A program made the position numbers and the translations under genes. The notes beneath the pieces were generated by a model. That model saw only the letters and a list, made by a program, of their open reading frames with translations. It was not told the origin of the DNA and did no database searches. 64,000 bases of DNA, from contig CADDYT010000010.1 in NCBI GenBank assembly GCA_902810755.1, positions 12,570 to 76,569 of the forward strand, in the 5' to 3' direction. Source of the DNA: Chloroflexota bacterium (lineage in GTDB: Bacteria; Chloroflexota; Ktedonobacteria; Ktedonobacterales; Ktedonobacteraceae). Numbering within the stretch: the stretch's first letter is position 1; each line of letters opens with the position of its first letter. Shown piece after piece: positions 36,171 through 50,713 of the stretch.

Positions 36171-36743
36171 ATGCCCTTTCCGTTTGTCGCGTTTTTACGC
36201 CGATTTTTTCCCGAACCCTCACTTTCGTCTTCTGCCCCGTCTGGACGCATTCAGGAGCAGATTAATCCAACAGCCATTGCCTCTTCTCCCACGCAAGAGG
36301 ACTGGTACTGGGGAAGATTGGCAACTGGAGGAGAGGAAGACTATTACTGGCGTAGGATCAGCGATAACTGGTACATCAAAGATGTAATTCCATCAACTTA
36401 TCTGGAGTTACATAACACCTGCTATGAGGCGTATAACGCGAATCCGCTGGCGTTTGCCATTATTGAGATTACGACGAGCTTTGTGATGGGGAAGGGGGTG
36501 ACGGTGGCGGCGACGGAGCCGGAGGTGCAGCGCGTGCTGATGGATTTCTGGCATGATCCCGATAATCATATGGAGACGCGGGTGTATGCGTTGTGTACGG
36601 AGTTGTCGCTGTATGGCGAGCAGTTTATCCGTTTCTTCGTCAATCGCTTCGATGGGCGCGTGAAGATCCGGCAGATTGACCCGTCGTTGATCGACCAGAT
36701 TGAGACCGATCCCGATGATGTCGGGTCTTCGGTCGCCACATAG
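36171..36743 (+). pseudogene. Phage-type portal protein, N-terminal part (split gene)
   Basis: The first 183 codons of a portal protein: an acidic start, then NTCYEAYNANPLAFAIIEITT, TELSLYGEQFIRFFVNRFDG and RQIDPSLIDQIETDPDD. These are common portal segments. At the core GAT at 36717-36719 the native sequence ends and the inserted element begins; eight foreign codons follow to the stop at 36741. The other part of the gene starts at 50710. Portal proteins form the DNA-entry ring of tailed phage heads. In the integrated state the gene is interrupted, and precise excision would restore it. Confidence 0.85.
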
Positions 36744-38301
36744 TTGCAATCAGCGTGCCAGGTGCCTCTTCATATTCCCTAAAGCCCTCGATAAAGCGCA
36801 GCAAGGGTAAAAAGACAGGCCGAGGAGTAATGGCTGCAATCTGTTGTGCCTCCAGATCATAGGAGATACCATTCGGTTCAAGGAGATGAATCACCATCTC
36901 ACGCTGCTCATCAACGGTAGCAACACTCCATAGTGCCACTATTGTCGGAAGCTGCTCACCAGCCGCCAAGACTTCCTCTATCTTTACTCCACCTACCACT
37001 GGTGATTCTAAACTACGCAGCGCCAGTTCTACCGCAGCCATCTCGCTCTCGAACTCTCTATCATCGATATAACCTTCCCTATGTTGCTTGAGAATGCGAC
37101 TGCGTTTTAACGTAAGACGTTCTTTCTCCCGTTGGACAGATTCTGCATCGAAGCCTGCCTGACTGGCAGATTCCATGATTTTCTGCCGTACCATGTCACG
37201 CCATGAAGGAGGTAGCTGAAGCCCTTGTAATAACTCTCCAAACTGTTGTGTTACCCGCTCTTTTCTCACGTGAAGAGAACCGCCTGTAGGGCAATCTAAA
37301 CGACGAGCTTTTGCCATGTCCTTGTAGTATGAGTACTTTCCACCGCCATAACCCTTACAAGGCAGGTTTGTACCGCAGTAGGCGCATTCGAGATAGCCGG
37401 AGAAAGCATACACATGGGCCTTTGCAGCACGATGAGGTGCATTATAGTTTACTTTTGCACCAAGACGTATCCGTTGCCACTCTTCATAAGTGAAAGCCGC
37501 TATATGTTGCCCCCTGTGTCGCTGACCGCGATACACAACCGTTCCTCTGTCATCATCAGGAGCGTAAGCAGCATAGAATACGTTGCCAGTAATCGCATTG
37601 ATAGTAGGAGCGGTAAAAGGTCGCTCACCAAATCGTTTGCTACTGATACGGTATCCGGCTGCATTCACAGCATCAGCTATCTGGTCAGCACTCATCCCCT
37701 TCATGCGTAGCTCACCGATCATTCGCAAACCGGGAAAAGTGTCAGGATTAGGCTCTGGAGGTGTCCTCTTTCCTGTATGGCGATATCCGAAAGGAATATC
37801 GCCATTGAATAACCCTTGAGCAGCACGTTCACCTTTGCCCTTACTAACATGCTTCGCGAGCATATCAGAAAAATAGGCCGCAAATGCTGCCAGGATAGTG
37901 AGTTGCAGTTTTCCCTCTGGGGAGGAGTAATCAATGTGTTCGGAGAGAGAAACAAATGCTGTGCGATGCTCAGCCAGAATACGAAAGCTTTGCAGGGTTA
38001 CCATAACATTACGAGACCAGCGATCTAAGGTATGCACTATCACCACCTGAACACGACCAGTCTCAATATCCTTAAGAAGTTGCCGAAATCCAGGACGTTT
38101 AGCAATCTGCTCACTTCGAGCACTGCGCTCGTCATCTTCATAGAACACCGGAGCAGGCAGCCCACGGCGCATACACTCTTCAGTGATAGCTCTCTTCTGA
38201 GCGTCGATGCTGAAGTTATCCGCCTGCATACGGCTGGAACGACGGACATAGCCAGCTACAACCACCGACGAAGGTTCAGAACGATCACGCCGCAGGTTCA
38301 T
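36640..38301 (-). CDS. Large serine recombinase (integrase) with att site in its own 3' end
   Basis: A 553-residue large serine recombinase. The catalytic Ser22 is in AGYVRRSSRMQ, with LDRWSRN and the recombinase domain (GIPFGYR-like DIPFGYRHTGK), a zinc ribbon (LECAYCGTNLPC with later Cys) and a coiled-coil region (REKERLTLKRSRILKQH). The start at 38301 has GAGGTGG just upstream and overlaps the previous gene by 17 bases. The frame runs out of the element through attL: the last 25 codons are the complement of portal sequence. In the circular form the same frame would continue at 50707 into the helix-turn-helix array, giving about 793 residues. Confidence 0.93.
   Translation of the reverse strand: MNLRRDRSEPSSVVVAGYVRRSSRMQADNFSIDAQKRAITEECMRRGLPAPVFYEDDERSARSEQIAKRPGFRQLLKDIETGRVQVVIVHTLDRWSRNVMVTLQSFRILAEHRTAFVSLSEHIDYSSPEGKLQLTILAAFAAYFSDMLAKHVSKGKGERAAQGLFNGDIPFGYRHTGKRTPPEPNPDTFPGLRMIGELRMKGMSADQIADAVNAAGYRISSKRFGERPFTAPTINAITGNVFYAAYAPDDDRGTVVYRGQRHRGQHIAAFTYEEWQRIRLGAKVNYNAPHRAAKAHVYAFSGYLECAYCGTNLPCKGYGGGKYSYYKDMAKARRLDCPTGGSLHVRKERVTQQFGELLQGLQLPPSWRDMVRQKIMESASQAGFDAESVQREKERLTLKRSRILKQHREGYIDDREFESEMAAVELALRSLESPVVGGVKIEEVLAAGEQLPTIVALWSVATVDEQREMVIHLLEPNGISYDLEAQQIAAITPRPVFLPLLRFIEGFREYEEAPGTLIATMWRPKTRHHRDRSQSGRSTTGQSAGSSRAHRSD
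36717..36748. other. attL of the element
   Basis: Core GATGTCG (36717-36723), then TCGGTCGC at 36729-36736, five bases, and AGTTGCA at 36742-36748. The same TCGGTCGC-N5-AGTyGCA pattern lies in inverted orientation at the right end (50677-50696). In the circle both arms would be 11 bases from a central GA dinucleotide, the expected form of a serine integrase attP. The site lies within both the portal gene (plus) and the recombinase gene (minus). Confidence 0.8.
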
Positions 38302-38467
38302 ACGCCACCTCATTCTCTTGAGCGACTGATGTTAACGGTAAAGAGAGCAAAGCCAGAATACGAGCATCTTGCTCAGCAACAGCCCGCTTCAAAATGCGAG
38401 CCAGCAACGCGCAGAACGCCACCACATCGGACGAAAGTGCTTCCACTTTCTCAGTTTCGTTTGCCAT
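38285..38467 (-). CDS. Small hypothetical protein upstream of the recombinase
   Basis: A 60-residue helical protein (MANETEKVEALSSDVVAF, ILKRAVAEQDARILALL). GGGGAGA precedes the ATG at good distance. Its stop overlaps the recombinase start by 17 bases, so the two genes are translated from one message and may be coupled. A role as a recombinase helper, such as a directionality factor, is possible from position alone. The family is not recognised. Confidence 0.6.
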   Translation of the reverse strand: MANETEKVEALSSDVVAFCALLARILKRAVAEQDARILALLSLPLTSVAQENEVAYEPAA

Positions 38468-38606
38468 ATGTCTCCCCTATTCTAGCATATCTACAGGCAA
38501 ATTGGTACATCTGACCTAGACGATGCACTCCATTGAACAGCAAACAAAAAAAGCCAGAAGCAAAAGCTACTGACTATCACGGAAGAGCTTTATTTGTCTG
38601 TTTGAT

Positions 38607-39200
38607 TCAATACCCAGGCCGAAAAGCACGCGCCACGTGTTGCCAGCAGATCACCTCAAAGGTATTAGCAAGGAGACCAGAAACCAGCATCGCAAAGGGC
38701 GAACTACGCTGAAACCGGGCAGAAGGTATATCCATCCACATCTCAAACATTTCCCTCATCCAGTCCTTGAGCAGATCAGCGCAAGCGTACACGCTCGGCG
38801 ATAGGTGCAGCAGCACAGAAAACTGCTGTTGCCACTCTGGATAACTCACGATGCTCTGGTAGAGAGTGAGCGTAAAAAGATTGTCGGTGGTCATCGTTTC
38901 CCCAACCAGCAACCGTACCAGCACATCCCAATCGACAGAGGCCAGGGCCGAGCCGACCAGATCGGAAGCCAGCAAGCGCATCGCATCATCCTGTGACCAG
39001 TCACGGCCAGCATAGCCCGTTAACCAGTTTTCCAGCGCCATCTTCACCCACATCTGCACGCGCCAACCCGCCGCTCCATCGTTAGCGGCATCGGCCACCA
39101 AGCCCGTGATCTCGTGCATCAACGCCTGCTCATTGCTCAGGTGCAGATGCACGAGCCAGGTAAACTTATTTTCCCAACCGTTATATGCGTTCAGTCGCAA
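38607..39200 (-). CDS. DUF7249-like hypothetical protein
   Basis: About 197 residues. The N-terminal LNAYNGWENKFTWLVHLHL matches a short motif (NGWxNxETWxVxLWL) widespread in phage and plasmid proteins of unknown role. The remainder is helical with many Trp (VQMWVKMALENWLTGYAGRDW). I place the start at the TTG 39200, which follows AAGGGGGTG; a GTG at 39224 overlapping the Rep stop is the alternative. It sits between the Rep gene and the small gene before the recombinase. Confidence 0.65.
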   Translation of the reverse strand: MRLNAYNGWENKFTWLVHLHLSNEQALMHEITGLVADAANDGAAGWRVQMWVKMALENWLTGYAGRDWSQDDAMRLLASDLVGSALASVDWDVLVRLLVGETMTTDNLFTLTLYQSIVSYPEWQQQFSVLLHLSPSVYACADLLKDWMREMFEMWMDIPSARFQRSSPFAMLVSGLLANTFEVICWQHVARAFRPGY

Positions 39201-39211
39201 GCAACACCCCC

Positions 39212-40342
39212 TTAACCGGCCCACCGACGTTCGCCACGTTGATAGGCCCAGATGCTAATCACACGTCCTGACATCTGTCGTTGCCCTTCACGAAGATCAA
39301 TCAATGCCTCTAACAGCGCCTTGCGCCGCCGCCGCTTATACTCTTTGATGTCCTGGGTGAACTCTTCCCGCTCTACCAGCGTCCACGACGACCGCCTTAC
39401 CAGTTGTCTTTGTCCCTCTTCTGGCCTGTCAGCCGCCTCTTGCCCACTTTCGCCAGAACCAACCACAGCAGGAACACTTTCTGTTTGCGCCCCCTCTGAC
39501 ACAGCCTGACCATCGGCCTGTTCCATCACGTTCTGTTCCAGTTCAGAGAACAGACGCGCCCGCAGCGTCGTCACCGATTCGGGGAAAAAATGCCGGGAAT
39601 AGCGAATGCGCCGCGCTTTGCTGACCAGTTCCGCCGTGTAGGTTTGCCGTTCCTCAACCACATGCCCTTCGTTATCGACAGTGATACCGACTCGTTCCCG
39701 CTTCTCAGTGCGAACGCCCTTTTCGCTTCTGGTCAGGCTTTTGGTGAGGTACTTAGTCACATAACCGATCACCTGCGGCTTGCGAATACCCTCCACATCA
39801 ACGATATAAGCAACGCCATGGCGCGCCGAGCGCCAGCCTTCTTTGAGGATGTCGTGAGGAATATAGGTTGCACCTTTGACCAGCAGATGCCAGTGAAAGC
39901 CGTTCTCTTCAAAGTCGCTATGCCGTTCCAGTACCGCGAAGTATTCCACCGGATACGCCTCACGCGCCCCCACATGATGCGGCCCACGACCTTTTGAGCC
40001 ACGGCGTAGGTATTGCAGGAACGTCGTGAGAGCGCGAGCCGCTTCCTCTACTGTATGACCCGCTTTCGTCAGCGTGATGAACAGGGTCGGTTCAGCAGCC
40101 TTGACCAGTTGCCGCCACTGATCCACTTTGCGCGGCCCACAGTAGAGACAATCCCACCGATTGCAACGAGCGCGAACGATCTCACCTGTTTCCTGATCGA
40201 TGAAGACATGACGCAGCGCCCAGGGGTCGGGACAGAACAGCAGGCTATCAACCCCATGCTTCTCTGCCATATCCGCCTGTTTCTCTAGTGAGAACACCTG
40301 CCAGGAGTGCCGCTCCACCTTCAAAGTCCCTGCATGTTCCAT
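39212..40342 (-). CDS. HUH-type replication initiator (Rep)
   Basis: A 376-residue rolling-circle-type replication protein. A zinc-binding-like cluster CNRWDCLYCGPRK is near residue 80. The metal-binding HUH motif is ENGFHWHLLVKG, and the likely nicking Tyr lies in QVIGYVTKYLTKSL. ERHSDF and LFITLTKAGH are also typical of plasmid Reps. The protein would nick the element's origin and prime replication from the 3' end. The start at 40342 follows AGAGAGGTG; a longer frame to 40411 has no such site. The candidate origin lies upstream at 40,777. Confidence 0.82.
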   Translation of the reverse strand: MEHAGTLKVERHSWQVFSLEKQADMAEKHGVDSLLFCPDPWALRHVFIDQETGEIVRARCNRWDCLYCGPRKVDQWRQLVKAAEPTLFITLTKAGHTVEEAARALTTFLQYLRRGSKGRGPHHVGAREAYPVEYFAVLERHSDFEENGFHWHLLVKGATYIPHDILKEGWRSARHGVAYIVDVEGIRKPQVIGYVTKYLTKSLTRSEKGVRTEKRERVGITVDNEGHVVEERQTYTAELVSKARRIRYSRHFFPESVTTLRARLFSELEQNVMEQADGQAVSEGAQTESVPAVVGSGESGQEAADRPEEGQRQLVRRSSWTLVEREEFTQDIKEYKRRRRKALLEALIDLREGQRQMSGRVISIWAYQRGERRWAG

Positions 40343-40370
40343 TGGCACACCTCTCTGAGTCCTTAGCCAC

Positions 40371-40694
40371 CTACTTCCAGACACACTCCACACATTCAAT
40401 TGCATCAGCAACCCCGAAAAGCCTTTTGACCTCTTCCCTCATCGGCCAAGCATGGTCAGGACAGCAAGCCCGACCACAGATATGACAAACCAGCAGCCCT
40501 TCATCACGCTCACAGTAGCAGCAACGCTCAGGAACCATTTCTCTGCATGACCGTTGATAGCAGTCCTCACAGAGCCGTGTCCCTGTCAGAGTAAACAGCC
40601 ATTCCGCTCTGCCATGACAGCACAAACTGTCACAGTCCACACCAGCAGCGTTCTCATATGGCGCGAACCACGCCGACCAGTCCGAGTTTGCCAT
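40371..40694 (-). CDS. Small Cys-rich zinc-finger protein
   Basis: About 107 residues with many Cys pairs: LCCHGRAEW, LCEDCYQRSC, RCCYCERDEG, VCHICGRACC and IECVECVW. The pattern suggests two or three zinc-binding modules in a row. AAGGAGGTG lies eight bases before the ATG at 40694. It is placed directly before Rep on the same strand, so it may help in replication control or bind DNA. The exact family is not recognised. Confidence 0.7.
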   Translation of the reverse strand: MANSDWSAWFAPYENAAGVDCDSLCCHGRAEWLFTLTGTRLCEDCYQRSCREMVPERCCYCERDEGLLVCHICGRACCPDHAWPMREEVKRLFGVADAIECVECVWK

Positions 40695-40776
40695 CGGCAT
40701 CACCTCCTTGTGCCAATTCAAAGTCGGCTACATGGTACTTGTGTGACTTACGCTTATAAGGGTCAAGGGAAAGGCC

Positions 40777-40834
40777 CGGCGGTTTGTACGTCGTCCGGCG
40801 GGGCCCCTCCCCCACCGGCGCGTACAAACCGCCG
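40777..40834. other. Candidate replication origin hairpin
   Basis: A perfect 14-bp inverted repeat, CGGCGGTTTGTACG (40777-40790) and its complement (40821-40834), with a GC-rich 30-nt loop that contains GGGGCCCC and two CCGG boxes. It lies in the only sizeable non-coding gap of the minus-strand operon, 83 bp before the zinc-finger/Rep pair. This is the position expected for a double-strand origin nicked by the Rep protein. No nick site can be assigned. Confidence 0.5.
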
Positions 40835-41015
40835 CCGCCGAGACGACAAGGGGCCAGCCAGCGCGCGAGCGGCACAGAAAAGAGCAACAGGACAGACAAC
40901 CGCGAGAGAAAAACCGAGAGATGGGGGTGGGCAGGGGTAGGTGAAGCAAGCAGCAGCCCCGGAACTGGTCACTGGTACGCCCCACCCCCACAGGGAACGT
41001 GAGCAGCCGGGAAGG

Positions 41016-41972
41016 CTACCAGTTGCCGCGCAGGACACGTTGCCACATCTCTTGCGCCGAGCAGCCGTGAGAGAGGCAGAGAAAGTCAAACAGGTTGCCC
41101 GCACGGCCCCAGGTGTAGCAGTACCAGTGCGGGTCCGCGCCGCCGAAGACCTGGAAGCTGGGGCGCACATCACCGCGATAGTGATGCTCTTTGAAGGGGC
41201 AGCGACCGACGCCGCGCCGATCTAGCGAGACATAGCGCCCGATCACCTCAAAGATGTCTTGCGACTGGCACCATTGCCGTATCGTCAGGTCATACTCAGG
41301 TGTTCGACTCGCCCCGCAAATGGGCAGAATCCACCCCTCATTTTGAGGTGCTTGCGCTAATGGCAAGCTATCAACCGGCACCGTCACCCGCTCGACATGG
41401 GCCGTCGCCCACAGACAGCAATCGGCGACCGTTTCCCCCACCGGCGCCAGTTCGCCCACCTCATTGCATGTCAAGAAGGGATACCAGCCGCCGCTTTTGC
41501 GATGCACGCCCAATGGCAAGCGCACCAGCGCCCCCACGCCATCACTGGCAAGCCCATCTTGCTTCGGGTACAACTCGACACCGTAGGCTTGCGCATAGGG
41601 CAGCAGCCAGGCGCGCACCTGCGAGGCAGGCGTTGGCTCTCGCAGGTGCAGCCATAAGTGACCGCCGCGCCGACTGGCTTCTAACAGCGTTGGCATGCCC
41701 TGCTCTCGCAGGAGCGCGGCCAGCGAGAGCAGAACATCCAGCCCGTTGTCACTATCGGCATCGAAGACCGCGAAGGCGCAGGTGCTGTGCCGGTCAAGCA
41801 GATAGCTACCGAGGGTGTAACGCCCCATCAAATGCGCGGTGAGGCGTTCCAGGGTAAGTGGCCCTCTGGCATGGCGGTAGGAACCATCGGCCTGCTGGAC
41901 GGCGTAGGTGTCCCAACAGTGGATGAACAGCGAGGCGTAGACTTGCACGATCTCGCTGGTGATCCCGTACAT
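41016..41972 (-). CDS. AEP-type primase with CHC2-like zinc finger
   Basis: A 318-residue primase. The N-terminal part fits the archaeo-eukaryotic primase fold of the TOTE type: CAFAVFDADSDNGLD (metal-binding Asp pair), LLEASRRGGHLWLHL and GVELYPKQDGL. The C-terminal part is like the DnaG-type CHC2 finger: RCPFKEHHYRGDVRPSFQVF and HWYCYTWGRAGNLFDFL, although one Cys of the usual set is replaced by Trp. It would make primers for the element's replication. It starts two bases after the Topo VI-A-like stop codon, so the genes are likely coupled. Confidence 0.82.
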   Translation of the reverse strand: MYGITSEIVQVYASLFIHCWDTYAVQQADGSYRHARGPLTLERLTAHLMGRYTLGSYLLDRHSTCAFAVFDADSDNGLDVLLSLAALLREQGMPTLLEASRRGGHLWLHLREPTPASQVRAWLLPYAQAYGVELYPKQDGLASDGVGALVRLPLGVHRKSGGWYPFLTCNEVGELAPVGETVADCCLWATAHVERVTVPVDSLPLAQAPQNEGWILPICGASRTPEYDLTIRQWCQSQDIFEVIGRYVSLDRRGVGRCPFKEHHYRGDVRPSFQVFGGADPHWYCYTWGRAGNLFDFLCLSHGCSAQEMWQRVLRGNW

Positions 41973-41974
41973 GC

Positions 41975-43306
41975 CTACGAGACTTCCTGTTCATAGCCTG
42001 AGAGCAGCGGCTTGCCCTGGAACTGCTTGTAGGCAGCAAGCTGTTCGAGGTAGTCGCGCTCGGAGTTGTAGAGACCCTCGCCCACCTCGTTGCCCCAGGC
42101 TGCCTGTGGCAGAGGATAGTAGGCCAGATCAGGAGCCGAGAGGGCCAGTTCCTGACCAATGGCTTGCCATACGGCTTGCACGCGCTGGCTGTAGCCCTGC
42201 ACCCGCCCCTCGAACTCTTGTCGCAGGGTCTCATGTTCGGCTTGCAGGGCTTGCAGATCGTCGGCATAGCGGCCAACCACCTGTTGCCAGGTCAGATTCA
42301 GGTCCTGCTCTAACGTCGCTCGTACCTGCTGCGTGCGCTCTTCCAACGTGGTGTCAAAGTAGCACTCGATGTAGTGACTCAGCACGCTTTGCAGTTCGCC
42401 GGGGTAGAGCGCCTCAAGGGCGTCAAGCTCGACGGCCCCTTCGCCGTAGCGATCTTCAAAGCCTTGCCGCCGCCGCTCGGTCTCTTTGATCGGAGTGCGG
42501 GGCAGACCGTAGTGACGCACCTGCTCGAGGGTGAGAACGACCGGGAAGACGCGCACATCGACGGAGAGGCCCAGGGTACGCACAAAGTATTCGATTTTGC
42601 GCGAGACGGCCACCGGCATCGATTGCCCGGCAGGGTCGAAATCGGAGACGTAGAAGATGCGCGCCGGTTTCCTGGCTTGCTGTAAGCGGAAGGCTAAGGC
42701 CAGCGTGGCCGTGATCGACAGTTCGCCCAGGCCCGTTTGCAGGTTGGCCCCGTAGTGCTGGCAGAGGGGAGCCAGCACATCATTCATGGTCGATTTCTCA
42801 CACCAGATTTCCAGGTGATAGCCCTGTTGCGGTTTATAGCCACTGATCCGGTAGGAGGGCAGCGTTGGAAAGTCGGGAAAGCTCAGATCAGACTGCCACA
42901 GATTGCGACTGACGGAGACTTCCGGTTCGTAGACGCTGCTCGTGGCAAAGACCACCGGGTCGGGGTTGCGCCGGTCATCAAAGGCCGCCGGGTCGACCAG
43001 CCGCAGGTAGCGCGCCGCTTTGGAGGCCAGGTTGAGGATGTTCCAGCACTCTTCCGTATTCTCATACGGCTTGCCATTGGGCAAGGCGATGGGAGGGCGC
43101 TGGCTGATAATCTGGTAATGGACGCGGCGGATATGCACGTGGCCGCTATAGCCGAAGGCGTGCCACAACTGCGCGAACCATTCGGCCAGCGCCCAATCCG
43201 AAGGCGTGCCGGTATAAAACGGGTCATTTTGCGGAGCCAGGGCGATCAGGTCAGTGACGCGCTGCCCACTGGCTTTTGCCATCTGTTTAATCTGTTCATA
43301 ATCCAT
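41975..43306 (-). CDS. Spo11/Topo VI subunit A-like protein
   Basis: A 443-residue protein. The N-terminal winged-helix part has HIRRVHYQIISQ, matching the place of the catalytic Tyr in Spo11/Topo VI-A. The TOPRIM part has the acidic sets YHLEIWCEKST and IFYVSDFDPAGQSM. A long helical tail follows (about 310-400). In Topo VI the A subunit cuts DNA and needs a GHKL ATPase B subunit; no such gene is in the element. It may act alone as a nuclease, or with a host partner. GAGGTGA precedes the ATG. Confidence 0.8.
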   Translation of the reverse strand: MDYEQIKQMAKASGQRVTDLIALAPQNDPFYTGTPSDWALAEWFAQLWHAFGYSGHVHIRRVHYQIISQRPPIALPNGKPYENTEECWNILNLASKAARYLRLVDPAAFDDRRNPDPVVFATSSVYEPEVSVSRNLWQSDLSFPDFPTLPSYRISGYKPQQGYHLEIWCEKSTMNDVLAPLCQHYGANLQTGLGELSITATLALAFRLQQARKPARIFYVSDFDPAGQSMPVAVSRKIEYFVRTLGLSVDVRVFPVVLTLEQVRHYGLPRTPIKETERRRQGFEDRYGEGAVELDALEALYPGELQSVLSHYIECYFDTTLEERTQQVRATLEQDLNLTWQQVVGRYADDLQALQAEHETLRQEFEGRVQGYSQRVQAVWQAIGQELALSAPDLAYYPLPQAAWGNEVGEGLYNSERDYLEQLAAYKQFQGKPLLSGYEQEVS

Positions 43307-43390
43307 GCCTGTTCACCTCATGCAGACAAAGAGAGCCTGCCTTGCCCCCAGACAAGACAGGCCCGAGCAACGAAGAAACCACCTCACTGG

Positions 43391-43516
43391 CTAGTGCGGG
43401 TGACGCTGGAAGTGTCGCCATTGATGCCGGTTGGCAAACTGGACGCTTTGCCCACTGGCGAGTGCCTGGCGAATGGCCTCCGCCTCGGCTTTGCGCAAGC
43501 GCCGCCCGGCAGGCAC
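43391..43516 (-). CDS. Small basic protein (41 residues)
   Basis: A GTG at 43516 overlaps the stop of the upstream membrane-protein gene by one base (TAGTG), a coupling pattern. It encodes a basic helix followed by a second segment: RRLRKAEAEAIRQALASG and SVQFANRHQWRHFQRHP. The product looks like a small nucleic-acid-binding protein. The call rests on coupling and composition, so it is tentative. Confidence 0.5.
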   Translation of the reverse strand: MPAGRRLRKAEAEAIRQALASGQSVQFANRHQWRHFQRHPH

Positions 43517-44244
43517 TACGAGGAGCGCCCCTGCACCGGAGCGAAAGGGACTGCCACCCCTGCTTTATTCGTCGTCCCCATTGCTGCCGGAGCCGGAGTC
43601 TGTGCTTGATAGCCTTGCGGATAGCTTGCCAATGGAGGAGGAGCACTCACCGGAGCCGCGCCAGCCGTGGGCATGGTATTCCACTTGGGTTGCCCTTTAC
43701 CCGCAGCAGGCCCGGAGAACAAGGGACTGGCAGGAACGCCCGGCGGGGAAGCCGGACGAGGAGCGAAACCCGCACCGTGTTTGGAACGTTCCAAATCCAT
43801 ATCGACGACGGCCAGCAGCACCGAGACCAGCGGGATAATCGCCAGCACCACATAGGTCAGGCCGGTCAACACCGTGCGCTGGACGAGCGGAACAGCAGAG
43901 AGCCAGGTCGCATGCTGGATGACCGCCGCCGCCAGGGCATAGTTACAGAAGACCTCGACCAGTTCGACCACCAGGCAAATGGGAGCATAGGCCCAGATGC
44001 GTTCTTTGTTCATCAGCCGCAACGCCAGGCCGCGACTGACGAAGTAGCCCAGCACGCCGAAGCCAATAGCGATCATCCAGGTGATGGCCGACTGCAGGTA
44101 GTCTACCCCATCCAGAGGGGCGAAGAACCAGCGAATGGCATGAGCCGAGGCCAGCGAGAAGCCCAGAGAGACCACGCGCAGCACCAGGTGTTCAAAGCGG
44201 CGCACCCACACCTGCTGACCGCTCAACCCGCCAAACAGTTGCAT
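43516..44244 (-). CDS. Four-helix membrane protein with Pro-rich tail
   Basis: A 242-residue protein with about four membrane segments in residues 20-150 (VVSLGFSLASAHAIRW, AITWMIAIGFGVLGYFV, YALAAAVIQHATWLS, VLTGLTYVVLAIIPLVSVLL) and a long Pro/Ala/Gly-rich cytoplasmic tail. AAGGGGGTG precedes the ATG. No transport or enzyme motif is visible. Membrane proteins of this form occur on plasmids and integrative elements, where they may act in exclusion or membrane attachment. Function unknown. Confidence 0.65.
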   Translation of the reverse strand: MQLFGGLSGQQVWVRRFEHLVLRVVSLGFSLASAHAIRWFFAPLDGVDYLQSAITWMIAIGFGVLGYFVSRGLALRLMNKERIWAYAPICLVVELVEVFCNYALAAAVIQHATWLSAVPLVQRTVLTGLTYVVLAIIPLVSVLLAVVDMDLERSKHGAGFAPRPASPPGVPASPLFSGPAAGKGQPKWNTMPTAGAAPVSAPPPLASYPQGYQAQTPAPAAMGTTNKAGVAVPFAPVQGRSS

Positions 44245-44261
44245 GCATCACCCCCTTGCGA

Positions 44262-44612
44262 TTACGCCGCCGCCGCGACGGCAGCCAACTGGCAGACCAG
44301 GGTCAGGAAGGAGCCTTTGCCCTTGATCCGGCGCACCTGAAGGGCGATGTGCGTCATCTTGGGCGGCAATTCGGCCTGCAATTGCTGCGCCACCTGCGCC
44401 AGCACGTCGGCAGGCTGGCCCTGTTTCTTGAGGTCGCGCAGCTGATCGAGGGAAGGAATGCCCTCACTGAGCTGGCACTCGTACTTTTCGTCGGTCTCGC
44501 TATCCAGCACCGTCAATCGCACCGAGTAGCCCGGTTTGGGCTGGCCGGTCATCTGGTCATAAAAGGTGCTTTCCACCACCTGACTGTTCAAGACCAATCC
44601 TTGCAGTAACAT
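44262..44612 (-). CDS. Hypothetical protein, possibly OB-fold single-strand binding
   Basis: A 116-residue protein. The first half is strand-rich with an OB-like run (LLQGLVLNSQVVESTFYD, GYSVRLTVLDSETDEKYEC) and the second is helical, ending with IALQVRRIKGKGSFLTLVC. Its place among replication genes makes an ssDNA-binding role possible, but no family is recognised. AAAGGGATG lies before the ATG at 44612. It runs 17 bp ahead of the membrane-protein gene. Confidence 0.55.
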   Translation of the reverse strand: MLLQGLVLNSQVVESTFYDQMTGQPKPGYSVRLTVLDSETDEKYECQLSEGIPSLDQLRDLKKQGQPADVLAQVAQQLQAELPPKMTHIALQVRRIKGKGSFLTLVCQLAAVAAAA

Positions 44613-44696
44613 CGTTTCATCCCTTTCTTGCTTGTGCTTGTACACACACGTTGACAACAATGCATCAAAAAGAGGCCCATCAGAACACGCAGATCG

Positions 44697-45197
44697 CTAG
44701 TCGTCTTCCTCTTCCAGACAGGAGCCATCCAACCAGTAGGGCGTAAAAGTCTGCGACGTGGTGGGAATGCCGTAAGGACGAGTCGGAGCAAGAGCCTCGG
44801 CCTCACAGGGCCTGACATCCTCACGGCCCCCGTAAATGAAGTCGTGACGCACCCCTGAGGCCCGTTGAAAGCCCGCTGCGCGCACAAAGGCCAGATCAGC
44901 ACTCACCAACCCTGGACGCCGACGACCGCACGTTAACACCTCATCCGGCCTCATCTGCAACGCCGCCTGTACGTAGGAGCGAAACAGACGGCGTTGCTCG
45001 GTCGCTGGAAGCGGTTGGCCGCGCGTATTGCGAAAGTCTTGCGGGGTCAGGTATTGCACATCTAACGGGTGCAATAGCGGCAGCCCTTGCCGCGCCCGCC
45101 AGCGCGCACTGAAAGCCGCCCAGCTGGCAAGACCGGCCAGACGCTGGTGCGCAAATTCGGCATTGTAACGTCGGAAATTGCAGTGACTCGGATTCAT
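44697..45197 (-). CDS. Hypothetical protein of the element
   Basis: A 166-residue, Arg- and Ala-rich protein (MNPSHCNFRRYNAEFAH, RRLFRSYVQAALQMRPDE, FDFIYGGRED-like centre) with an acidic end. Its ATG overlaps the stop of the previous gene by four bases (ATGA), which supports translation in the operon. No known motif is visible. Confidence 0.6.
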   Translation of the reverse strand: MNPSHCNFRRYNAEFAHQRLAGLASWAAFSARWRARQGLPLLHPLDVQYLTPQDFRNTRGQPLPATEQRRLFRSYVQAALQMRPDEVLTCGRRRPGLVSADLAFVRAAGFQRASGVRHDFIYGGREDVRPCEAEALAPTRPYGIPTTSQTFTPYWLDGSCLEEEDD

Positions 45198-45418
45198 GGC
45201 CGCAGCACCTCAGCCACTTCCAGGGGATGGGCCAGAGCATCGCTGGCGATCCAGTGCAAGTCCTGCACCAGTTCGGCCAGTTGTGCATCACCCACGATGC
45301 AGGCCGCTTCATAGAGCGGAACCGTCAACGCCACCACCTGTGACCACTCCCCTGCCTCAAGAGCTACATTGATGGTGTCAATCAACCCATCCAGGTCAAC
45401 ATGCGTTGGTGAAGACAT
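45194..45418 (-). CDS. Small helical protein of the element
   Basis: A 74-residue acidic, helical protein (MSSPTHVDLDGLIDTINVAL, LTVPLYEAACIVGDAQLAEL). GAGGGGAAG lies before ATG 45418. It overlaps both neighbours, by 23 bases upstream and 4 downstream, within the compact minus-strand operon. Function is not recognised. Confidence 0.6.
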   Translation of the reverse strand: MSSPTHVDLDGLIDTINVALEAGEWSQVVALTVPLYEAACIVGDAQLAELVQDLHWIASDALAHPLEVAEVLRP

Positions 45419-45638
45419 CAGCAGCTTCCCCTCTCTCAGCGCAGTCATTCCCCGGCTGCATAAGCCCCCTGGCCTCTTCACAGAGCAGGGAGGGCAGCTC
45501 AGACGGAGCCGAGGCAACACAGTGCCGACAGACGCCGATATAACCACAGCCACAGAGGCAAACGAAGTAGCCAGCCCCCACACGTTCAATGCAATGCCGT
45601 GTGTAGGCCAGCCGCAGACGCAGTTCCGCAGAAAGCAT
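45396..45638 (-). CDS. Small Cys-rich protein
   Basis: An 80-residue protein with a Cys cluster (YFVCLCGCGYIGVCRHCV) that could bind zinc, followed by an acidic tail. AGAAAGGGAACACC precedes the ATG. The gene overlaps the next by 23 bases. It is the second small Cys-rich protein of the element after the one at 40371. The role is unknown. Confidence 0.6.
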   Translation of the reverse strand: MLSAELRLRLAYTRHCIERVGAGYFVCLCGCGYIGVCRHCVASAPSELPSLLCEEARGLMQPGNDCAERGEAADVFTNAC

Positions 45639-45706
45639 GGTGTTCCCTTTCTCTCTCAGCGAAAGCCGAGGCCATCGACCATCAGGAGCCAGACACGGGA
45701 AACGGG

Positions 45707-46186
45707 CTACGCGGTCTCATCAGGCGGACGCGAGTCATCAAAGACCAGCCCCCACTCCTGACAGAGCCGCGCCACCTGTTTGCGAACGTCCTGAGCCTGC
45801 CGCAAGAGCCGTTGCTGCTGTTGTTGGGCATGAGCGTAGAGCGGCTGATAGAGGGCCGCTTTCTCCGTCAGGCCGAACTCGCGCAGCCAGGAGATGCTGT
45901 GTTGCCAGTGCCAGCACGCCTGATTGATCGCCCGTTGCATGCTCTCAAACCACGCGACGGCGGCAGCGGTCAGTTCTTCGACACCCGAACACAGCGACCA
46001 TAGCCCTTGCTGATAGCTGTAGCGCCACTCCTGTTCCTGGCAGACGGCTTCAATGGCATGGGTAACGGCATACAGTTCCGCTTTCACCGTTGCCTGTGCG
46101 ACAAAGGCCAGCCAGGGGGCAAGCACCTCCTGAAACGAAGGTTGCGCTTGCTCAAAAGGCATGGCCCCATCAATGGTTTGGACCAT
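45707..46186 (-). CDS. Hypothetical helical protein of the element
   Basis: A 159-residue protein, nearly all helix, rich in Gln and Trp (LWSLCSGVEELTAAAVAWFE, HAQQQQQRLLRQAQDVRKQV). A coiled coil near the C-terminus is likely. GAAGGGGGAAAG lies before the ATG. No membrane segment or motif is seen. Confidence 0.6.
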   Translation of the reverse strand: MVQTIDGAMPFEQAQPSFQEVLAPWLAFVAQATVKAELYAVTHAIEAVCQEQEWRYSYQQGLWSLCSGVEELTAAAVAWFESMQRAINQACWHWQHSISWLREFGLTEKAALYQPLYAHAQQQQQRLLRQAQDVRKQVARLCQEWGLVFDDSRPPDETA

Positions 46187-46198
46187 CTTTCCCCCTTC

Positions 46199-46306
46199 TT
46201 AAAACCCATGCTGCAAGGTGTTCAGGGCCGTCGGGCCGAGGACAACCAGCCAGGTCACGAACATCACCGCCGCAATCAGCAGCCAGATCACCGTTTTCTT
46301 GCCCAT
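46199..46306 (-). CDS. Single-span membrane micro-protein
   Basis: A 35-residue protein: MGKKTVIWLLIAAVMFVTWL begins it and one membrane helix fills it. AAAGGAG lies eight bases before the ATG at 46306. It is 12 bp ahead of the next gene of the operon. Its size is below most gene-calling limits, so the call depends on the good binding site and membrane helix. Confidence 0.55.
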   Translation of the reverse strand: MGKKTVIWLLIAAVMFVTWLVVLGPTALNTLQHGF

Positions 46307-46408
46307 ATCGCACTCCTTTCGCACGTATGGCTTGCCAATAAAAAAGGACACCCAACACGTGAGTATCCCAACCAGCAACACTTGAACAAACTACGAGGTC
46401 GCGTCACG

Positions 46409-46555
46409 CTAATGCGGCATGCTTATCAGGTACAGGAAGCCGATCAGACAGGCCAGACCGATGAGCCAGCCCAGACAGCACAGTTTCCCACGCAGACGAA
46501 AGAGCAGCAGGAACACAACCAGGGCAACCATAAACAATACCGGAGCAAACCTCAT
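46409..46555 (-). CDS. Two-span membrane micro-protein
   Basis: A 48-residue hydrophobic protein: MRFAPVLFMVALVVFLLLFR, then GKLCCLGWLIGLACLIGFLY. AAAAGGAG lies seven bases before ATG 46555. Together with the 35-residue protein just downstream it forms a pair of membrane micro-proteins in the same operon. Function unknown. Confidence 0.55.
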   Translation of the reverse strand: MRFAPVLFMVALVVFLLLFRLRGKLCCLGWLIGLACLIGFLYLISMPH

Positions 46556-46589
46556 CTCATTACTCCTTTTCTCTAAGCTGCCTCATGGC

Positions 46590-46723
46590 TAGCTAACGCG
46601 ATGTGCAACTTTTTTTCGGCGCGCTTGAAAAGTGAACCTGAAAGTAACCGAAGAAGTCATGCAAGAAAGCTAATTGGCTTCGCAAGCGTCGACGCAAAAG
46701 AAAGTTGCACATCGCGTTAGCTA
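46590..46723. repeat. 23-bp perfect inverted repeat in the operon
   Basis: TAGCTAACGCGATGTGCAAC and three further bases at 46590-46612 are exactly complementary to 46701-46723. The 88-base loop has no gene. It lies between the stop of the gene at 46724 and the start at 46555. It could be a replication or transfer site, or a control hairpin in the mRNA. Confidence 0.8.
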
Positions 46724-46870
46724 TCAGACAACTTGGTATATCTCGAAACGCTGGCATTCGGTGCGCATCAAGGCACGAGCCAGTTTCGTCGGTCGATTTT
46801 TGCGCACGACCTCAACGGTTTCGCAAACACCATTGAGCAGGTAGTACACAATCTGCCAGGTATGTAGCAT
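46724..46870 (-). CDS. Small hypothetical protein
   Basis: A 48-residue protein (MLHTWQIVYYLLNGVCETVE, then KNRPTKLARALMRTECQRFE). GAGGGGGTGATGAG lies before the ATG. Another frame in the same place (to 46768) is less protein-like, so this one is preferred. It is downstream of the sigma factor and upstream of the inverted repeat. Confidence 0.5.
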   Translation of the reverse strand: MLHTWQIVYYLLNGVCETVEVVRKNRPTKLARALMRTECQRFEIYQVV

Positions 46871-46949
46871 CTCATCACCCCCTCAAACGTGGCAGAAAAA
46901 AAGGATACTCGTTTGAGTATCCCAACGTTGCAGCATGAAAGAGCCAGAC

Positions 46950-47777
46950 TCAACTCGCTTGAAGCAAGACACGACGCAAGCGGGTGCGAGCGCGGCGATC
47001 AAGCTCCTGAACTCTGTTCAGTCCCATGCCGAGCAAACGCGCTGTCTCTTGCTGTGTGTATGCCCGACCATCGCCAAAGCCGTAGCGCGTCAGAATCACA
47101 GTACGTTCACGCTCGGTTAAGCATTCCAGCATCTCTTCCAGCGTCGACAGGTCATCATCTACAGTGGTAGCAGTATCTTCAATGGCCTCCGCGAGCGTCA
47201 TACCCTCATCGTCATCAATGGGAGTATCCAGGCTCATCACCTGCTGTTGCTCTTGCAACACCAGCAATTCCAACACGTTGCCCTCAGTCGTTCCCATCTC
47301 AGCCGCCGTTTCACAGATCGTCGGTTCGCGACCGAGCAAACTATACAACGCATCATTGACAGCTTTCATTTGCTTGAGAGCGCGAGCCTTATGCCAGGGC
47401 AGCCTGATTGTACCTTCATAGCGCCAGCGGGCAGTCAGCATGGAAATGCGTATCCACGCGAAGGCAAAGGTACCGAACGAAGTCTCTTCCCTGCGTCCAT
47501 CGTACTTTGCCAGTGCCTGAAGGAGTGCGACATTGCCCTCTTGCACGAGGTCGAGAAGCTCCAACGTCTTACAATTTCGCACAAATCGTTTTGCCAGAGC
47601 GAGGACAAGCGGTTGATAGCCAGCGACCAGGCGATCACGGGCTTGCTGGCTATCAATTCCCTGTTCCATGCAGAGAAATAGCTGTGTTTCCTCTTCACCT
47701 GTCAACTGTGGCGTCCGCCGTACCTCGCTCATGAACTGCTCGAAAGCTCCCAACGGGACATCCTGCATCTGTTCCAT
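46950..47777 (-). CDS. Sigma-70 family RNA polymerase sigma factor
   Basis: A 275-residue primary-like sigma factor that lacks region 1.1. Region 1.2 to 2 includes LTGEEETQLFLCMEQG, LELLDLVQEGNVALLQAL and FAFAWIRISML; region 3 is GREPTICETAAEMGTTEG; region 4 is LTERERTVILTRYGFGDGRA followed by the HTH TQQETARLLGMGLNRVQEL. It resembles sigma factors of the SigA/RpoD line. It heads the long minus-strand operon of the element and could drive its own genes. Its promoter lies in the 214-bp divergent gap. Confidence 0.88.
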   Translation of the reverse strand: MEQMQDVPLGAFEQFMSEVRRTPQLTGEEETQLFLCMEQGIDSQQARDRLVAGYQPLVLALAKRFVRNCKTLELLDLVQEGNVALLQALAKYDGRREETSFGTFAFAWIRISMLTARWRYEGTIRLPWHKARALKQMKAVNDALYSLLGREPTICETAAEMGTTEGNVLELLVLQEQQQVMSLDTPIDDDEGMTLAEAIEDTATTVDDDLSTLEEMLECLTERERTVILTRYGFGDGRAYTQQETARLLGMGLNRVQELDRRARTRLRRVLLQAS

Positions 47778-47991
47778 AAATCCATCTCCCTTTGTTCACC
47801 TGAACGCTTCAGCTTCCTCAGACATTGCCACCACAAAACAGCACTCTATTGGCTCCTGATGTGCTATAATGTCTCGGCGATCTACTTTAATTATTGTTCA
47901 GAAAGATGGGAATAACTGAGACACAACGGGACAAAATGGGACAAACCGTTAGCGGCAAACAGGGCCACTTGCAACAAAATGGGAAAGACGC
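47778..47991. promoter_or_regulatory. Divergent control region with GGGACAAA repeats
   Basis: Between the sigma factor and the XRE-Nudix-like gene. Two direct GGGACAAA copies at 47928-47935 and 47938-47945 are exactly 10 bp apart, one helical turn, with a looser AATGGGAAAG at about 47,978. A TGTGCTATAATG stretch at about 47,860 contains a -10-like TATAAT. The spacing on one face suggests an operator, most simply for the XRE protein next to it. Confidence 0.6.
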
Positions 47992-49593
47992 ATGAGAGAT
48001 TTTGGCATCTTCCTCTCTAACTTACGGAGCAGCGCCGGACTCTCTTTAGAAGAGCTATCCAGGCTGGTTGACAGCAGTAAGAGCGCGCTTTCACGACTGG
48101 AAAACAACGAAGTACCGCAGCCCTTCAAAGGATCTGTACGCAAGTTGATTATTGCCCTGGCAGAGATTCTCTGTACATCGAAGGCGGAAACGAAGCACTA
48201 CCTTGAATTAGCAGGCATGAACCAGGCACTTCTGACAGAGACCGAGAAAATCCAACTCGGCTTTACCCCGGCCATTCCCGCCAGTTCGGCTGAAGAAGTC
48301 ATCACACTTGAACGGCTAGAGAGCATCTATACCCAGTTGCTTCAGCAATTAGAAGCGCGGGAAACGGCATTAGGTATCAGCAACTCACCGCCGAACTTGA
48401 AACTGAAGATTCAGGAATACGCCAATCTACTTCAGGAAATCCAGAAAAGACTTGACAAGATTTACAACAGGCAGGTAACATCAGAACTTGACGAAGCCCC
48501 AGAGGTACAAATCTACCATGCAGAGGCGTTAGAAGGGAAAATTGTCGTGGGATATCAATATGGTGAAAATCTGAATAAGGTGCTGAGTAGCTACAATCTC
48601 TACTCACTCGCATCACCGAATGCACGCTGGTTAATGCAGCTTGCCGACGTAGAACGTTTCGCCGTTGACGATTGCATCATTCTCACCAACAGTCATGATT
48701 TTGAGGGATGGGATCGTCACGAAATCAAGACGACCATTCTCAGCACATCATTACCCGTTCCAGAAGACCTGGAAAAGCTCAGACTGGAAAAACTTCCAGG
48801 CATTGAGAAGGATTACTTCAACTCGTCCCACTACCGACTCTCATCCTATACGCCATCCTTCAGCGATCTTGACCGCCTGGAAGTCGTGTTAGCCCCTTTA
48901 AGCTTTCACGACTACTACAGCCTGATACCCTACCTTGATGAGCCATTATTGACGACGATAGACGGTACAAAAATCTCCATTCGCCAGAAATACGGCAACA
49001 CTGCGCTCACCTATAGCTCAACAGATCGTGGAACATCCCTCATCCCGGCACCGATCAGCATTCAATGCATCGTTGTGACCAGAGACAACCAGATTTTACT
49101 CATGCGCCGATCTTCATCCGTTGCTTTCTACCCCAATCACTGGTCAGCATCCTTTGAGGAAACGATGAACGCGCCCGGTACCGACCGCAAAGGCAATCCT
49201 TCACGTTCGGCTGATTCCGACTTCTTTGCTGGAGCCATCCGGGGCTTAGATGAAGAGTTTGCCCTTTCTCCTGATGCAGTTGAGAGCATCAAAGTGCTAT
49301 CCCTCAACATCGAATACCTTACCCTGTCGGTTGATGTCATCACAGCCATCAAACTCAATCTGGATGCTGAAGAGATCAGGCAAAGCTGGCTCCTGAAAGC
49401 CTGGGATAGAGACGAAGCCTCAAAATTCGGCCTCTTATCTACCGACCTGAACGCCGTCGTAAACAAGCTCTTCAGCAGAACGCTCTGGCACCCAACCGCC
49501 AGAATGCGCCTCATCCAGTTCCTTTTCCACACTTACGGCGTTGATGAAGTTGCAAAAGAGATCAAAGCGAAGAAAGATACTTTGCAAGTCTGA
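47992..49593 (+). CDS. XRE regulator fused to a Nudix-like domain
   Basis: A 533-residue protein. Residues 5-60 are an XRE HTH (LSNLRSSAGLSLEELSRLVD, KSALSRLENNEV). A helical part (about 100-165) follows, then a mixed region. The last third (about 350-480) is Nudix-like: ISIQCIVVTRDNQILLMRRS, SASFEETMNAPG and GAIRGLDEEFALS, where the Nudix box keeps its Glu pair but lacks the first Glu of REUxEE. It may sense a nucleotide and then release DNA. It is the only sizeable plus-strand gene of the element and is divergent from the operon, a typical repressor position. Confidence 0.72.
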   Translation: MRDFGIFLSNLRSSAGLSLEELSRLVDSSKSALSRLENNEVPQPFKGSVRKLIIALAEILCTSKAETKHYLELAGMNQALLTETEKIQLGFTPAIPASSAEEVITLERLESIYTQLLQQLEARETALGISNSPPNLKLKIQEYANLLQEIQKRLDKIYNRQVTSELDEAPEVQIYHAEALEGKIVVGYQYGENLNKVLSSYNLYSLASPNARWLMQLADVERFAVDDCIILTNSHDFEGWDRHEIKTTILSTSLPVPEDLEKLRLEKLPGIEKDYFNSSHYRLSSYTPSFSDLDRLEVVLAPLSFHDYYSLIPYLDEPLLTTIDGTKISIRQKYGNTALTYSSTDRGTSLIPAPISIQCIVVTRDNQILLMRRSSSVAFYPNHWSASFEETMNAPGTDRKGNPSRSADSDFFAGAIRGLDEEFALSPDAVESIKVLSLNIEYLTLSVDVITAIKLNLDAEEIRQSWLLKAWDRDEASKFGLLSTDLNAVVNKLFSRTLWHPTARMRLIQFLFHTYGVDEVAKEIKAKKDTLQV

Positions 49594-49601
49594 ACAAAAT
49601 A

Positions 49602-49814
49602 ATGTCGAAAATCGTAGCAGTCATTCTAAGCACGCTTGGTGTCATCACCATTGTATCGGCGATTATCTGGTTTGTCTTCTACCTGAAAGGGAAGCAGTTC
49701 GCCTTACGAGATCGCCTCCAAAAAGCCGACGCTATTGTCGTCCTGGCCGGCACTCGTGGCAACATCCAGTACCTTGACGGCAAAATCTGTACTGCCCCCC
49801 TTAGGTTGGAATAA
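49602..49814 (+). pseudogene. Truncated YdcF/DUF218-like membrane protein
   Basis: The first 60 or so residues match a YdcF-family start: one membrane helix (VILSTLGVITIVSAIIWFVF), then LQKADAIVVLAGTRGNIQYL. The normal DUF218 domain, over 120 residues more, is absent. The frame changes character after DGKICTA near 49,795 next to a run of C residues and ends at 49814. It follows the XRE-Nudix gene by eight bases. It appears cut by a deletion. Confidence 0.6.
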
Positions 49815-49909
49815 GAAGATGTTATTGGAACAGGTGTTTTCTCTCATTATACCACAATCGATCATCGAAAGTGGGCATGAACCGATCCTGTGGGGGCACT
49901 ACAAACACT

Positions 49910-50706
49910 TTACTTTTCATCTTCGTTCTGTTTATAAGCCAGATACACTACTCTCCTGACGGTTGCCTGTGAAACATGATAGCTCTTGGCAATTTCGAGG
50001 AAAGTTTCACCTTGTTTCCTCCGCTGTAAAATCACAGACCACTCAGAAGGAGGTAGCTTCATATGAAGGTGAGGAAAACGTTCTGGAGCCTGTAGAGTCC
50101 TTCTAGCCTCTTTTTCCAGACGCCGCACTGATGTCTCTGAAACGCCATAATCTTTCGCGATTTGGTTGAATGTATCGCCCCGGTCGATTCGTTTCAAGAT
50201 AACAGACCACTCAGAGGGAGGGATATTACACCTGTAGCGAGGGGGACGTTCAGAAGCGTTGAATACCTTCCTCGCAGCTTTCTCTACTCGCTGAACAGCT
50301 TTCCTTGATACTGCATACTCCCTTGCAATCTGGCTAAGCGATTCCCCCTGGTCGATGCGTTGCAGTATCGCAGGCCACTCAGAAGGAGGTATCTTCCACT
50401 GGGAATGCTGGCGTCGGTCAGGAACGCCCAGGGCCTGGCGAGCGGCTTTTTCCGCGTTTCTGATGGTCGTATAGCTGACTCCGTATGCCTTTGCCACCTC
50501 TCGCAGTGGTTCCCCCTGGTCAATGCGCTCTAAGAGAGCGGGCCACACCGAGGGGGGGACTTTCCAGCGGGGATTAATCGGCCCTGGAAGGTTTTGGGGC
50601 GGAAAGACGCGCTGGAACTTCTCAGGCGGAGTAAAGGGAATGTCTTCGCCATCGGGGAACAGCTTTTCAGGTGGAATGCGACTTATGCGCGACCGATGGT
50701 TCGACA
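49910..50706 (-). CDS. Four-fold helix-turn-helix array; proposed 3' part of the recombinase gene
   Basis: Reading minus from the right element end, the frame is open for 265 codons to the stop at 49910. A Pro-rich lead (RIPPEKLFPDGEDIPFTPPE) is followed by four tandem units of about 56 residues, each with PPSxWxxxLxRxxxGxxxxxIAxxYxVSxxxVRR-type HTH pattern. There is no good start codon before the GTG at 50548, which lies inside the first unit. The frame matches the recombinase frame across the att core (codon 36718-36720 joins codon 50705-50707). I infer that in the circular form it is the C-terminal DNA-binding extension of the recombinase. In the integrated state it may be silent. Confidence 0.75.
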
Positions 50707-50713
50707 GATATCG
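50677..50713. other. attR of the element
   Basis: TGCGACT (50677-50683), five bases, GCGACCGA (50689-50696), then 10 bases and the core GATATCG (50707-50713). The arms are the reverse complement of those in attL with one mismatch. To the right, portal coding sequence resumes in frame (I-E-T-P-L-R). Confidence 0.8.

What the first reader, a model, noticed from the sequence alone, without database searches (positions are those of the whole stretch)
36640..50710. Attachment site lies inside the recombinase gene: integration would swap the integrase C-terminus
The minus-strand serine recombinase frame crosses the left att core, and its last 25 codons are antisense portal sequence. At the other end a four-HTH frame, with no good start codon, opens exactly at the right att core. 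With the core aligned (36717 = 50707, 13,990 bp) both frames are in the same phase. In the circle, codons CGA-CAT (36723-36718) continue to CTG-TCG-AAC (50707-50699) with no stop to 49910. The excised form would encode about 793 residues with four extra DNA-binding modules; the integrated form about 553 without them. This would be a built-in switch of recombinase activity or direction. A known parallel is phages whose attP lies in the repressor gene; I know of no described case with an HTH array on the integrase itself.
Basis: partly seen in the sequence, partly recalled or inferred. Interest (0 to 1): 0.95.

Follow-up and report, generated by a model that had tools for sequence, protein, structure and literature searches.

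The report
Recombinase that swaps its own tail
A 14-kilobase mobile element in a bacterium that is likely one of the Ktedonobacteria has its attachment site inside its own recombinase gene, so that inserting into the chromosome would replace four DNA-binding modules at the end of the enzyme with a short stretch of host sequence, a predicted built-in switch.

Summary
A 13,990-bp element splits a phage-type portal gene. Its large serine recombinase (LSR) runs across the left junction; a four-HTH frame without an upstream start codon opens at the right junction, in the same phase. The joined frame has 797 codons; the other two phases stop within 12. The joined element halves give an attP whose arms match at 14/18 positions (0 of 300,000 random pairs), against 4 for attL and 9 for attR.

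The design is shared. Relatives integrated in tRNA-Asp end in antisense tRNA, while 11 of 126 database LSRs are uninterrupted and end in an HTH tail. Two pairs have bodies 97-98% identical but different tails. A second right end carries the four-HTH frame in the same phase. Tails show purifying selection.

Against: no uninterrupted four-HTH (~790-residue) relative was found, no circle reads could be sought, and 30 of 126 LSRs stop before the core. What the tail does is untested; I infer that it serves integration. Closest known case: phage Mx8/Mx9 integrase, where integration alters the C-terminus. My paper searches listed no serine-recombinase example.

The parts
36718..38313 (-). Large serine recombinase body (532 codons), shared by the integrated and the predicted excised form
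   Evidence: PF00239 E 1e-29; PF07508 20.4 bits, just under its 21.1 cut-off; catalytic-domain and full-length LSR chains match the family profile
36640..36717 (-). Host-encoded end of the integrated form: 25 residues plus stop, antisense portal
   Evidence: tail matches antisense of intact portals at the same place, best E 0.004
36699..36736 (.). attL: host half 36699-36716, crossover GA 36717-36718, element half 36719-36736
   Evidence: empty sites in relatives; arm matches 4/18
50689..50726 (.). attR: element half 50689-50706, crossover GA 50707-50708, host half 50709-50726
   Evidence: arm matches 9/18; attP rebuilt from the two element halves 14/18
49910..50707 (-). Detached tail frame, 265 codons with four HTH units (about residues 48-94, 104-149, 161-205, 217-262, placed by eye); no start before codon 54
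   Evidence: (Sigma70_r4 3.3e-28, HTH_7 3.2e-19 among 36 HTH families)
36120..36716 (+). Left part of the split portal gene
   Evidence: phrog_10963 E 3.7e-11, profile 47-178
50707..51630 (+). Right part of the split portal gene
   Evidence: phrog_10963 E 4.4e-26, profile 228-443
39212..40411 (-). Rep-like protein of the element
   Evidence: PF23343 REP_ORF2-G2P E 4.8e-10
41016..41972 (-). Primase-like protein
   Evidence: PF22548 E 3.5e-20, PF01807 E 5.7e-08; phrog_5362 E 1.5e-19
41975..43306 (-). Topoisomerase-like protein
   Evidence: phrog_6247 E 6.2e-25
46950..47777 (-). Sigma-70-family factor
   Evidence: PF04542, PF04539, PF04545
47992..49593 (+). HTH regulator, 533 aa
   Evidence: PF13560 E 4e-08

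Best explanation
This is a 13,990-bp integrated element whose serine-recombinase gene spans its own attachment site, so that excision would fuse the recombinase to four helix-turn-helix modules and integration would exchange them for 25 host-encoded residues. Shown from sequence: the crossover point, the common phase, the missing start codon of the detached tail in this window, and the same body-tail junction in relatives. Inferred: the long enzyme is made only while the element is a circle (or in tandem copies), and its HTH array helps it hold attP or other element DNA for integration. Once inserted, the gene yields only the tail-less enzyme, which has a complete recombinase body but would no longer favour that reaction, so the inserted state is likely locked until another factor drives excision. 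In the modelled one-HTH relative the attachment site falls at the start of a low-confidence, probably flexible linker between body and HTH, so both forms would fold.
For: Phase and lengths; crossover from empty sites and attP arms. Uninterrupted body + HTH proteins (11 of 126; L001 with 639 aa). Bodies nearly identical with different tails: L001 vs P0013 98.3% over 544, P0035 vs P0030 97.2% over 538, P0124 vs P0025 94.9% over 447. tRNA-Asp overlapping the LSR 3' end in 6 of 10 loci. T. aurantia: both ends of a 29.6-kb element, tail in frame, rebuilt attP 17/22 (random 5 of 300,000) against 11/22 for either end. P0131: second portal right end with a four-HTH frame in the same phase. Tails: dN/dS 0.15-0.39 in 24 of 30 usable pairs. 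Model of L001: linker 538-584 mostly of low confidence, HTH helices 594-638.
Against: No direct evidence of a circle. No uninterrupted four-HTH portal-clade protein seen (120 of 278 hits listed). 30 of 126 LSRs stop before the core and 24 have other tails, so a tail is not needed in every clade. The 7 uninterrupted genomic junctions match at only 6-8 of 18 arm positions. 9 of 17 detached frames have some in-frame start upstream. 6 of 30 dN/dS pairs are 0.75-0.83. No call tests what the tail binds or does.
Confidence: 0.62

Rival explanations
1. The architecture is real but functionally neutral: attP merely overlaps the 3' part of the gene, and the enzyme works the same with or without the HTH tail.
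For: 30 of 126 LSRs end before the core and 24 have other tails. The body alone spans the known integrase fold.
Against: Tails are conserved as protein (dN/dS 0.15-0.39 in 24 of 30 pairs), and the HTH tail is found with two targets, tRNA-Asp and portal.
Confidence: 0.22
2. The tail acts in excision or in regulation, for example as a built-in directionality or repressor module that the free circle needs to stay free, or that binds its own promoter.
For: HTH arrays suit regulation. An unrelated LSR at a split portal carries a C-terminal HTH_17 with weak matches to directionality-factor families.
Against: A module made only in the circle comes too late to cause excision. The tail does not match excisionase families at the head of its Pfam and NCBIfam lists (best 25 of 36 and of 29 shown).
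Confidence: 0.1
3. The detached tail is a separate DNA-binding protein in the integrated state, and the fusion is secondary.
For: Gene callers place ORFs there (P0130, P0131). 9 of 17 detached frames have an in-frame start upstream.
Against: The window has none until codon 54, inside the first HTH, and elsewhere the starts lie at varying distances. Natural fusions join exactly at the core.
Confidence: 0.04
4. Chance or artefact: two unrelated frames that happen to be in phase, or a misassembly.
For: A shared phase alone has a chance of one in three.
Against: Homologous natural fusions, independent contigs with the same ends, an attP match that 0 of 300,000 random pairs reach.
Confidence: 0.02

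Closest known systems
Myxococcus phages Mx8 and Mx9, integrase gene (int/intP)
   Same: attP lies within the integrase gene; integration creates a recombinant gene with a new 3' end, reported not to inactivate the enzyme but to modify its specificity and read as a molecular switch (review PMC6070905, passages)
   Different: By recall a tyrosine recombinase (the Islander passage, also lists Mx8 under its tyrosine-only use of 'integrase'); here a large serine recombinase that loses a whole HTH array. Original papers not held
SSV-type integrases that extend across attP
   Same: attP inside the integrase gene (mentioned in PMC4383910, passage)
   Different: By recall SSV integration splits a tyrosine integrase into inactive parts; here the recombinase body stays whole
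SP-beta integrase and other large serine integrases (phiC31, Bxb1, TP901-1)
   Same: Same enzyme family by sequence and fold
   Different: By recall their attP lies beside the gene, not within it, and they have no exchangeable HTH tail; 9dxd is a laboratory-type fusion with a directionality factor as named in its chain title
Helper-embedded PICI satellites
   Same: Small element with a primase inserted in a phage late gene; excision restores the gene (PMC10111431, abstract and passages)
   Different: The word 'serine' has 0 occurrences in that text; no AlpA among the element ORFs scanned here; the portal here is a gene found across the class and its flanks in the window show no recognisable prophage in the ORFs listed

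Membership tests
Large serine recombinase / serine integrase | Resolvase-type N-terminal catalytic domain | tested here: met
   PF00239 103.9 bits, E 1e-29
Large serine recombinase / serine integrase | Recombinase domain PF07508 | tested here: inconclusive
   20.4 bits against a cut-off of 21.1 in the window; precomputed PF07508 in most listed relatives
Large serine recombinase / serine integrase | Long C-terminal part as in known LSRs | tested here: met
   Family profile positions 13-503 of 536 match chain 9dxh, E 4e-16; model of L001 aligns to phiC31, Bxb1 and SP-beta chains up to residue 505-514, with large rmsd over the whole length, 19-22 A
Large serine recombinase / serine integrase | Recombination between attP and attB without host factors | not testable with these tools
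   Needs an assay
Mx8-type integrase (attP in int, C-terminus swap) | attP inside the integrase reading frame | tested here: met
Mx8-type integrase (attP in int, C-terminus swap) | Both forms active, with altered specificity | not testable with these tools
   Needs an assay
Mx8-type integrase (attP in int, C-terminus swap) | Same enzyme family as Mx8 Int (tyrosine recombinase, by recall) | tested here: not met
   The enzyme is a serine recombinase
SSV-type integrase split by integration | Integration breaks the catalytic part | tested here: not met
   532-codon body with the catalytic domain left intact
Helper-embedded PICI | Insertion in a phage late gene | tested here: met
   Portal family in both halves
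Helper-embedded PICI | PICI integrase clade and AlpA | tested here: not met
   Serine recombinase; no AlpA among the element ORFs scanned, which are not all ORFs

The most novel reading that the evidence does not exclude
A family of serine integrases in Ktedonobacteria carries a one-step, reversible protein switch: each integration detaches a DNA-binding module from the enzyme and each excision restores it, so that the recombinase 'knows' from its own sequence whether the element is free or inserted. The switch has been kept while the elements changed target (tRNA-Asp, portal gene) and while the module differs from one HTH to four.
Probability: 0.5. Interest if true: 0.88.

Novelty: new variant of a known kind. 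Interest (0 to 1): 0.75.

Why it matters
How serine integrases are kept one-way is a central question, and fusions of integrase with its directionality factor are used to steer them (PMC5737554, seen only as title and start of abstract in a search listing). A natural family in which integration itself removes or restores a DNA-binding module would give matched pairs of enzyme forms and att sites to test directionality control, and perhaps self-limiting integration tools. The tRNA-Asp target is unusual too: the Islander paper of 2014 says that only tyrosine integrases were known to target tRNA genes (PMC4383910, passage); I did not establish whether later work changed that.

Tried and rejected
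Rejected: a chance open frame (homologous natural fusions and a common core); an assembly artefact (same architecture in isolate genomes and other contigs); a host HTH gene with its own start. Another short shared string near the core (CATCGG, seen by eye) was dropped, because the empty portal site and the inverted repeat both put the crossover at GA.

Led nowhere: no relatives among viral contigs; the portal finds two weak matches among phage records; the att site of the Ktedonobacter SOSP1-85 recombinase that stops before the core was not found; an unrelated LSR at the split portal of T. carboxidivorans crosses its core by a few codons, but its attR side gives 38 codons and no HTH array; the fold comparison does not test the tail (its rows span model residues 16-507); PDB sequence matches of the tail are weak and generic, best E 0.0068 to RpoH. 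The window's own genome is not held, so circles could not be sought. A distant LSR in L018 has an uninterrupted open frame of 762 codons with an HTH array of about three units; its att sites were not sought.

Paper searches for a serine integrase with attP in its own gene: (open-licence PubMed Central only; listings read, not every paper).
Full report
What is there. The window's own recombinase is listed in the protein database on a contig of 76,569 bp; no whole genome is held. Its relatives with named records are Ktedonobacteria, and the split gene has close relatives across that class, so the host is likely one of them. Between 36717 and 50707 lies an element of 13,990 bp with a recombinase, Rep-, primase-, topoisomerase- and sigma-factor-like genes and an HTH regulator. 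It splits a gene whose two parts match one portal family at consecutive profile positions, phrog_10963 47-178 and 228-443.

The crossover. Intact portal genes of relatives read, for example, IETDPEDIETPLRFHRR or IETDPDDIEKPLRFHRR without a gap (12 loci printed of 20), so the insertion point is fixed on both sides. The two ends share GA at 36717-36718 and 50707-50708. Together the two element halves give an attP whose 18-bp arms match as an inverted repeat at 14 positions; attL has 4, attR 9, attB 3, and 0 of 300,000 random arm pairs from the window reach 14.

The frame. On the minus strand the recombinase runs through attL into antisense portal, 25 more residues and a stop. Read across the element junction it continues for 265 codons, 797 in all; the other phases stop after 7 and 12. 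The tail frame at attR has no start codon before codon 54. The joined portal frame is open for 506 codons.

Relatives in the protein database. I classed 126 LSR proteins: the 120 listed of 278 hits (one of them the window's own) and 6 new ones. By pattern: 11 uninterrupted HTH tails; 4 attP-side tails without the HTH motif; 34 ending in the string DSNPRS(S/P)A or a close variant; 8 others with RDRQT; 8 of the window's WRP clade; 5 ending RNRRG(I/M); 30 ending before the core; 24 other; 2 truncated. Of the 11, P0121 is cut within its HTH, P0124-P0129 lack part of the N-terminus, and P0116 has a different core. Bodies nearly identical in sequence occur with different tails: L001 and P0013 98.3% over 544 residues, P0035 and P0030 97.2% over 538, P0124 and P0025 94.9% over 447. 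The string DSNPRS(S/P)A is antisense tRNA-Asp where DNA is at hand: in 6 of 10 genome loci (L002, L004-L007, L010) the LSR 3' end overlaps an intact tRNA-Asp gene on the other strand; L005 and L006 are near-identical in two species.

Paired ends in an isolate. In Thermogemmatispora aurantia the tRNA-Asp attL (contig position about 565,906) and an in-frame HTH tail at about 595,491 share GCGGAACCGACGGG; the rebuilt attP has 17 of 22 arm matches (5 of 300,000 random pairs), each single end 11 and attB 8. A tail profile finds 41 places in 11 of 47 genomes of the class. I examined 30 of the 41: 25 carry the core; in 7 an LSR body precedes the tail; in 16 distinct places none is detected (L070 and L078 are one place; the core found in L089 is not at its tail). 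Six of the 7 body-tail junctions have open frames of only 152-218 codons; I infer decayed junctions of tandem copies. The 7 match at only 6-8 of 18 arm positions, which does not support the palindrome there.

The portal clade. Tails of P0007, P0018 and P0028 match antisense of intact portals at the window's position, best E 2e-4, 0.03 and 0.009; P0032 (0.2) and P0005 (0.8) are no better than stray matches elsewhere; P0006 and P0062 have no match to an intact portal at the site. P0131 is a second right end: 57% identical over 99% of the four-HTH frame, preceded by residues ASQY, which I read by hand as antisense of portal DIEK, in the same phase. So the four-HTH design is not unique to this contig. 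No uninterrupted portal-clade protein was among the hits listed.

Selection and structure. Of 120 pairs among 16 distinct tail sequences, 30 had usable dS: 24 have dN/dS 0.15-0.39, and 6, all between L065/L066 and L070/L071/L077, 0.75-0.83 (pairs are not independent). At 8 of 17 detached tails, the window included, there is no in-frame start upstream; at 9 there is, at varying distance. In the AlphaFold model of natural L001 (mean pLDDT 67, pTM 0.38) the core codes for residues 535-538, residues 538-584 are mostly under pLDDT 60, and 594-638 form three helices at pLDDT 74-87. Known integrases align up to about residue 505-514, so the body before the core looks complete.

Mechanism. Shown: attachment site in the gene, common phase, tail detached at the right end, conserved tail. 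Inferred: the long enzyme is made from the circle and the HTH array serves integration; the short enzyme is the resident form. The neutral rival stays open because many relatives have no HTH tail.

Known parallels. A review says that in Mx8 attP lies within the integrase gene, that integration gives a new 3' end and modifies specificity, and that Mx9 follows a similar principle (PMC6070905, passages). The Islander paper notes that Mx8 and SSV integrases extend across attP, and that only tyrosine integrases were known to target tRNA genes (PMC4383910, passages). A large LSR survey has 0 occurrences of 'tRNA' in its main text (PMC10083194, passages). Four searches listed no serine integrase with attP in its own gene; most subscription papers are not held.

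Noticed in passing
window 36120-36716 and 50707-51630; L041-L060, L091: The portal gene has matches in 25 of 47 Ktedonobacteria genomes. In L091 it lies beside a capsid/protease gene (phrog_4523, PF25209) and a connector-like gene: possibly a domesticated or gene-transfer-agent-like cluster.
   Followed up: partly
L059/L094/L095 (G004), G005, G006, G031, G037: In five of the genomes the portal matches come in two complementary pieces, in G004 about 42 kb apart at a different site from the window's, with an unrelated LSR at the junction: a recurrent insertion target.
   Followed up: partly
L094:3335-5368 (-): A 678-aa LSR with a C-terminal HTH_17 domain and weak matches to excisionase/directionality-factor families: perhaps a natural integrase-RDF fusion.
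   Followed up: no
G005:C10 2388628-2657000 (K. racemifer): Ten tail matches on one strand within about 200 kb, upstream of an LSR at a tRNA-Asp: it looks like a long tandem array of decayed elements.
   Followed up: partly
L018 (K. sp. SOSP1-85): A distant LSR whose uninterrupted 762-codon open frame ends in about three HTH units.
   Followed up: no
window 46590-46616 / 46697-46723: A 27-nt inverted repeat, 96% complementary, 80 nt apart, inside the element; possibly an origin or a regulatory site.
   Followed up: no
window 52769-60064 (+): A 2,431-aa ORF with YD/RHS-type repeats by eye, downstream of the portal; not searched.
   Followed up: no
L002, L004-L007, L010: Large serine recombinases inserted in tRNA-Asp genes that remain intact, a target class that a 2014 paper reserves for tyrosine integrases.
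   Followed up: partly
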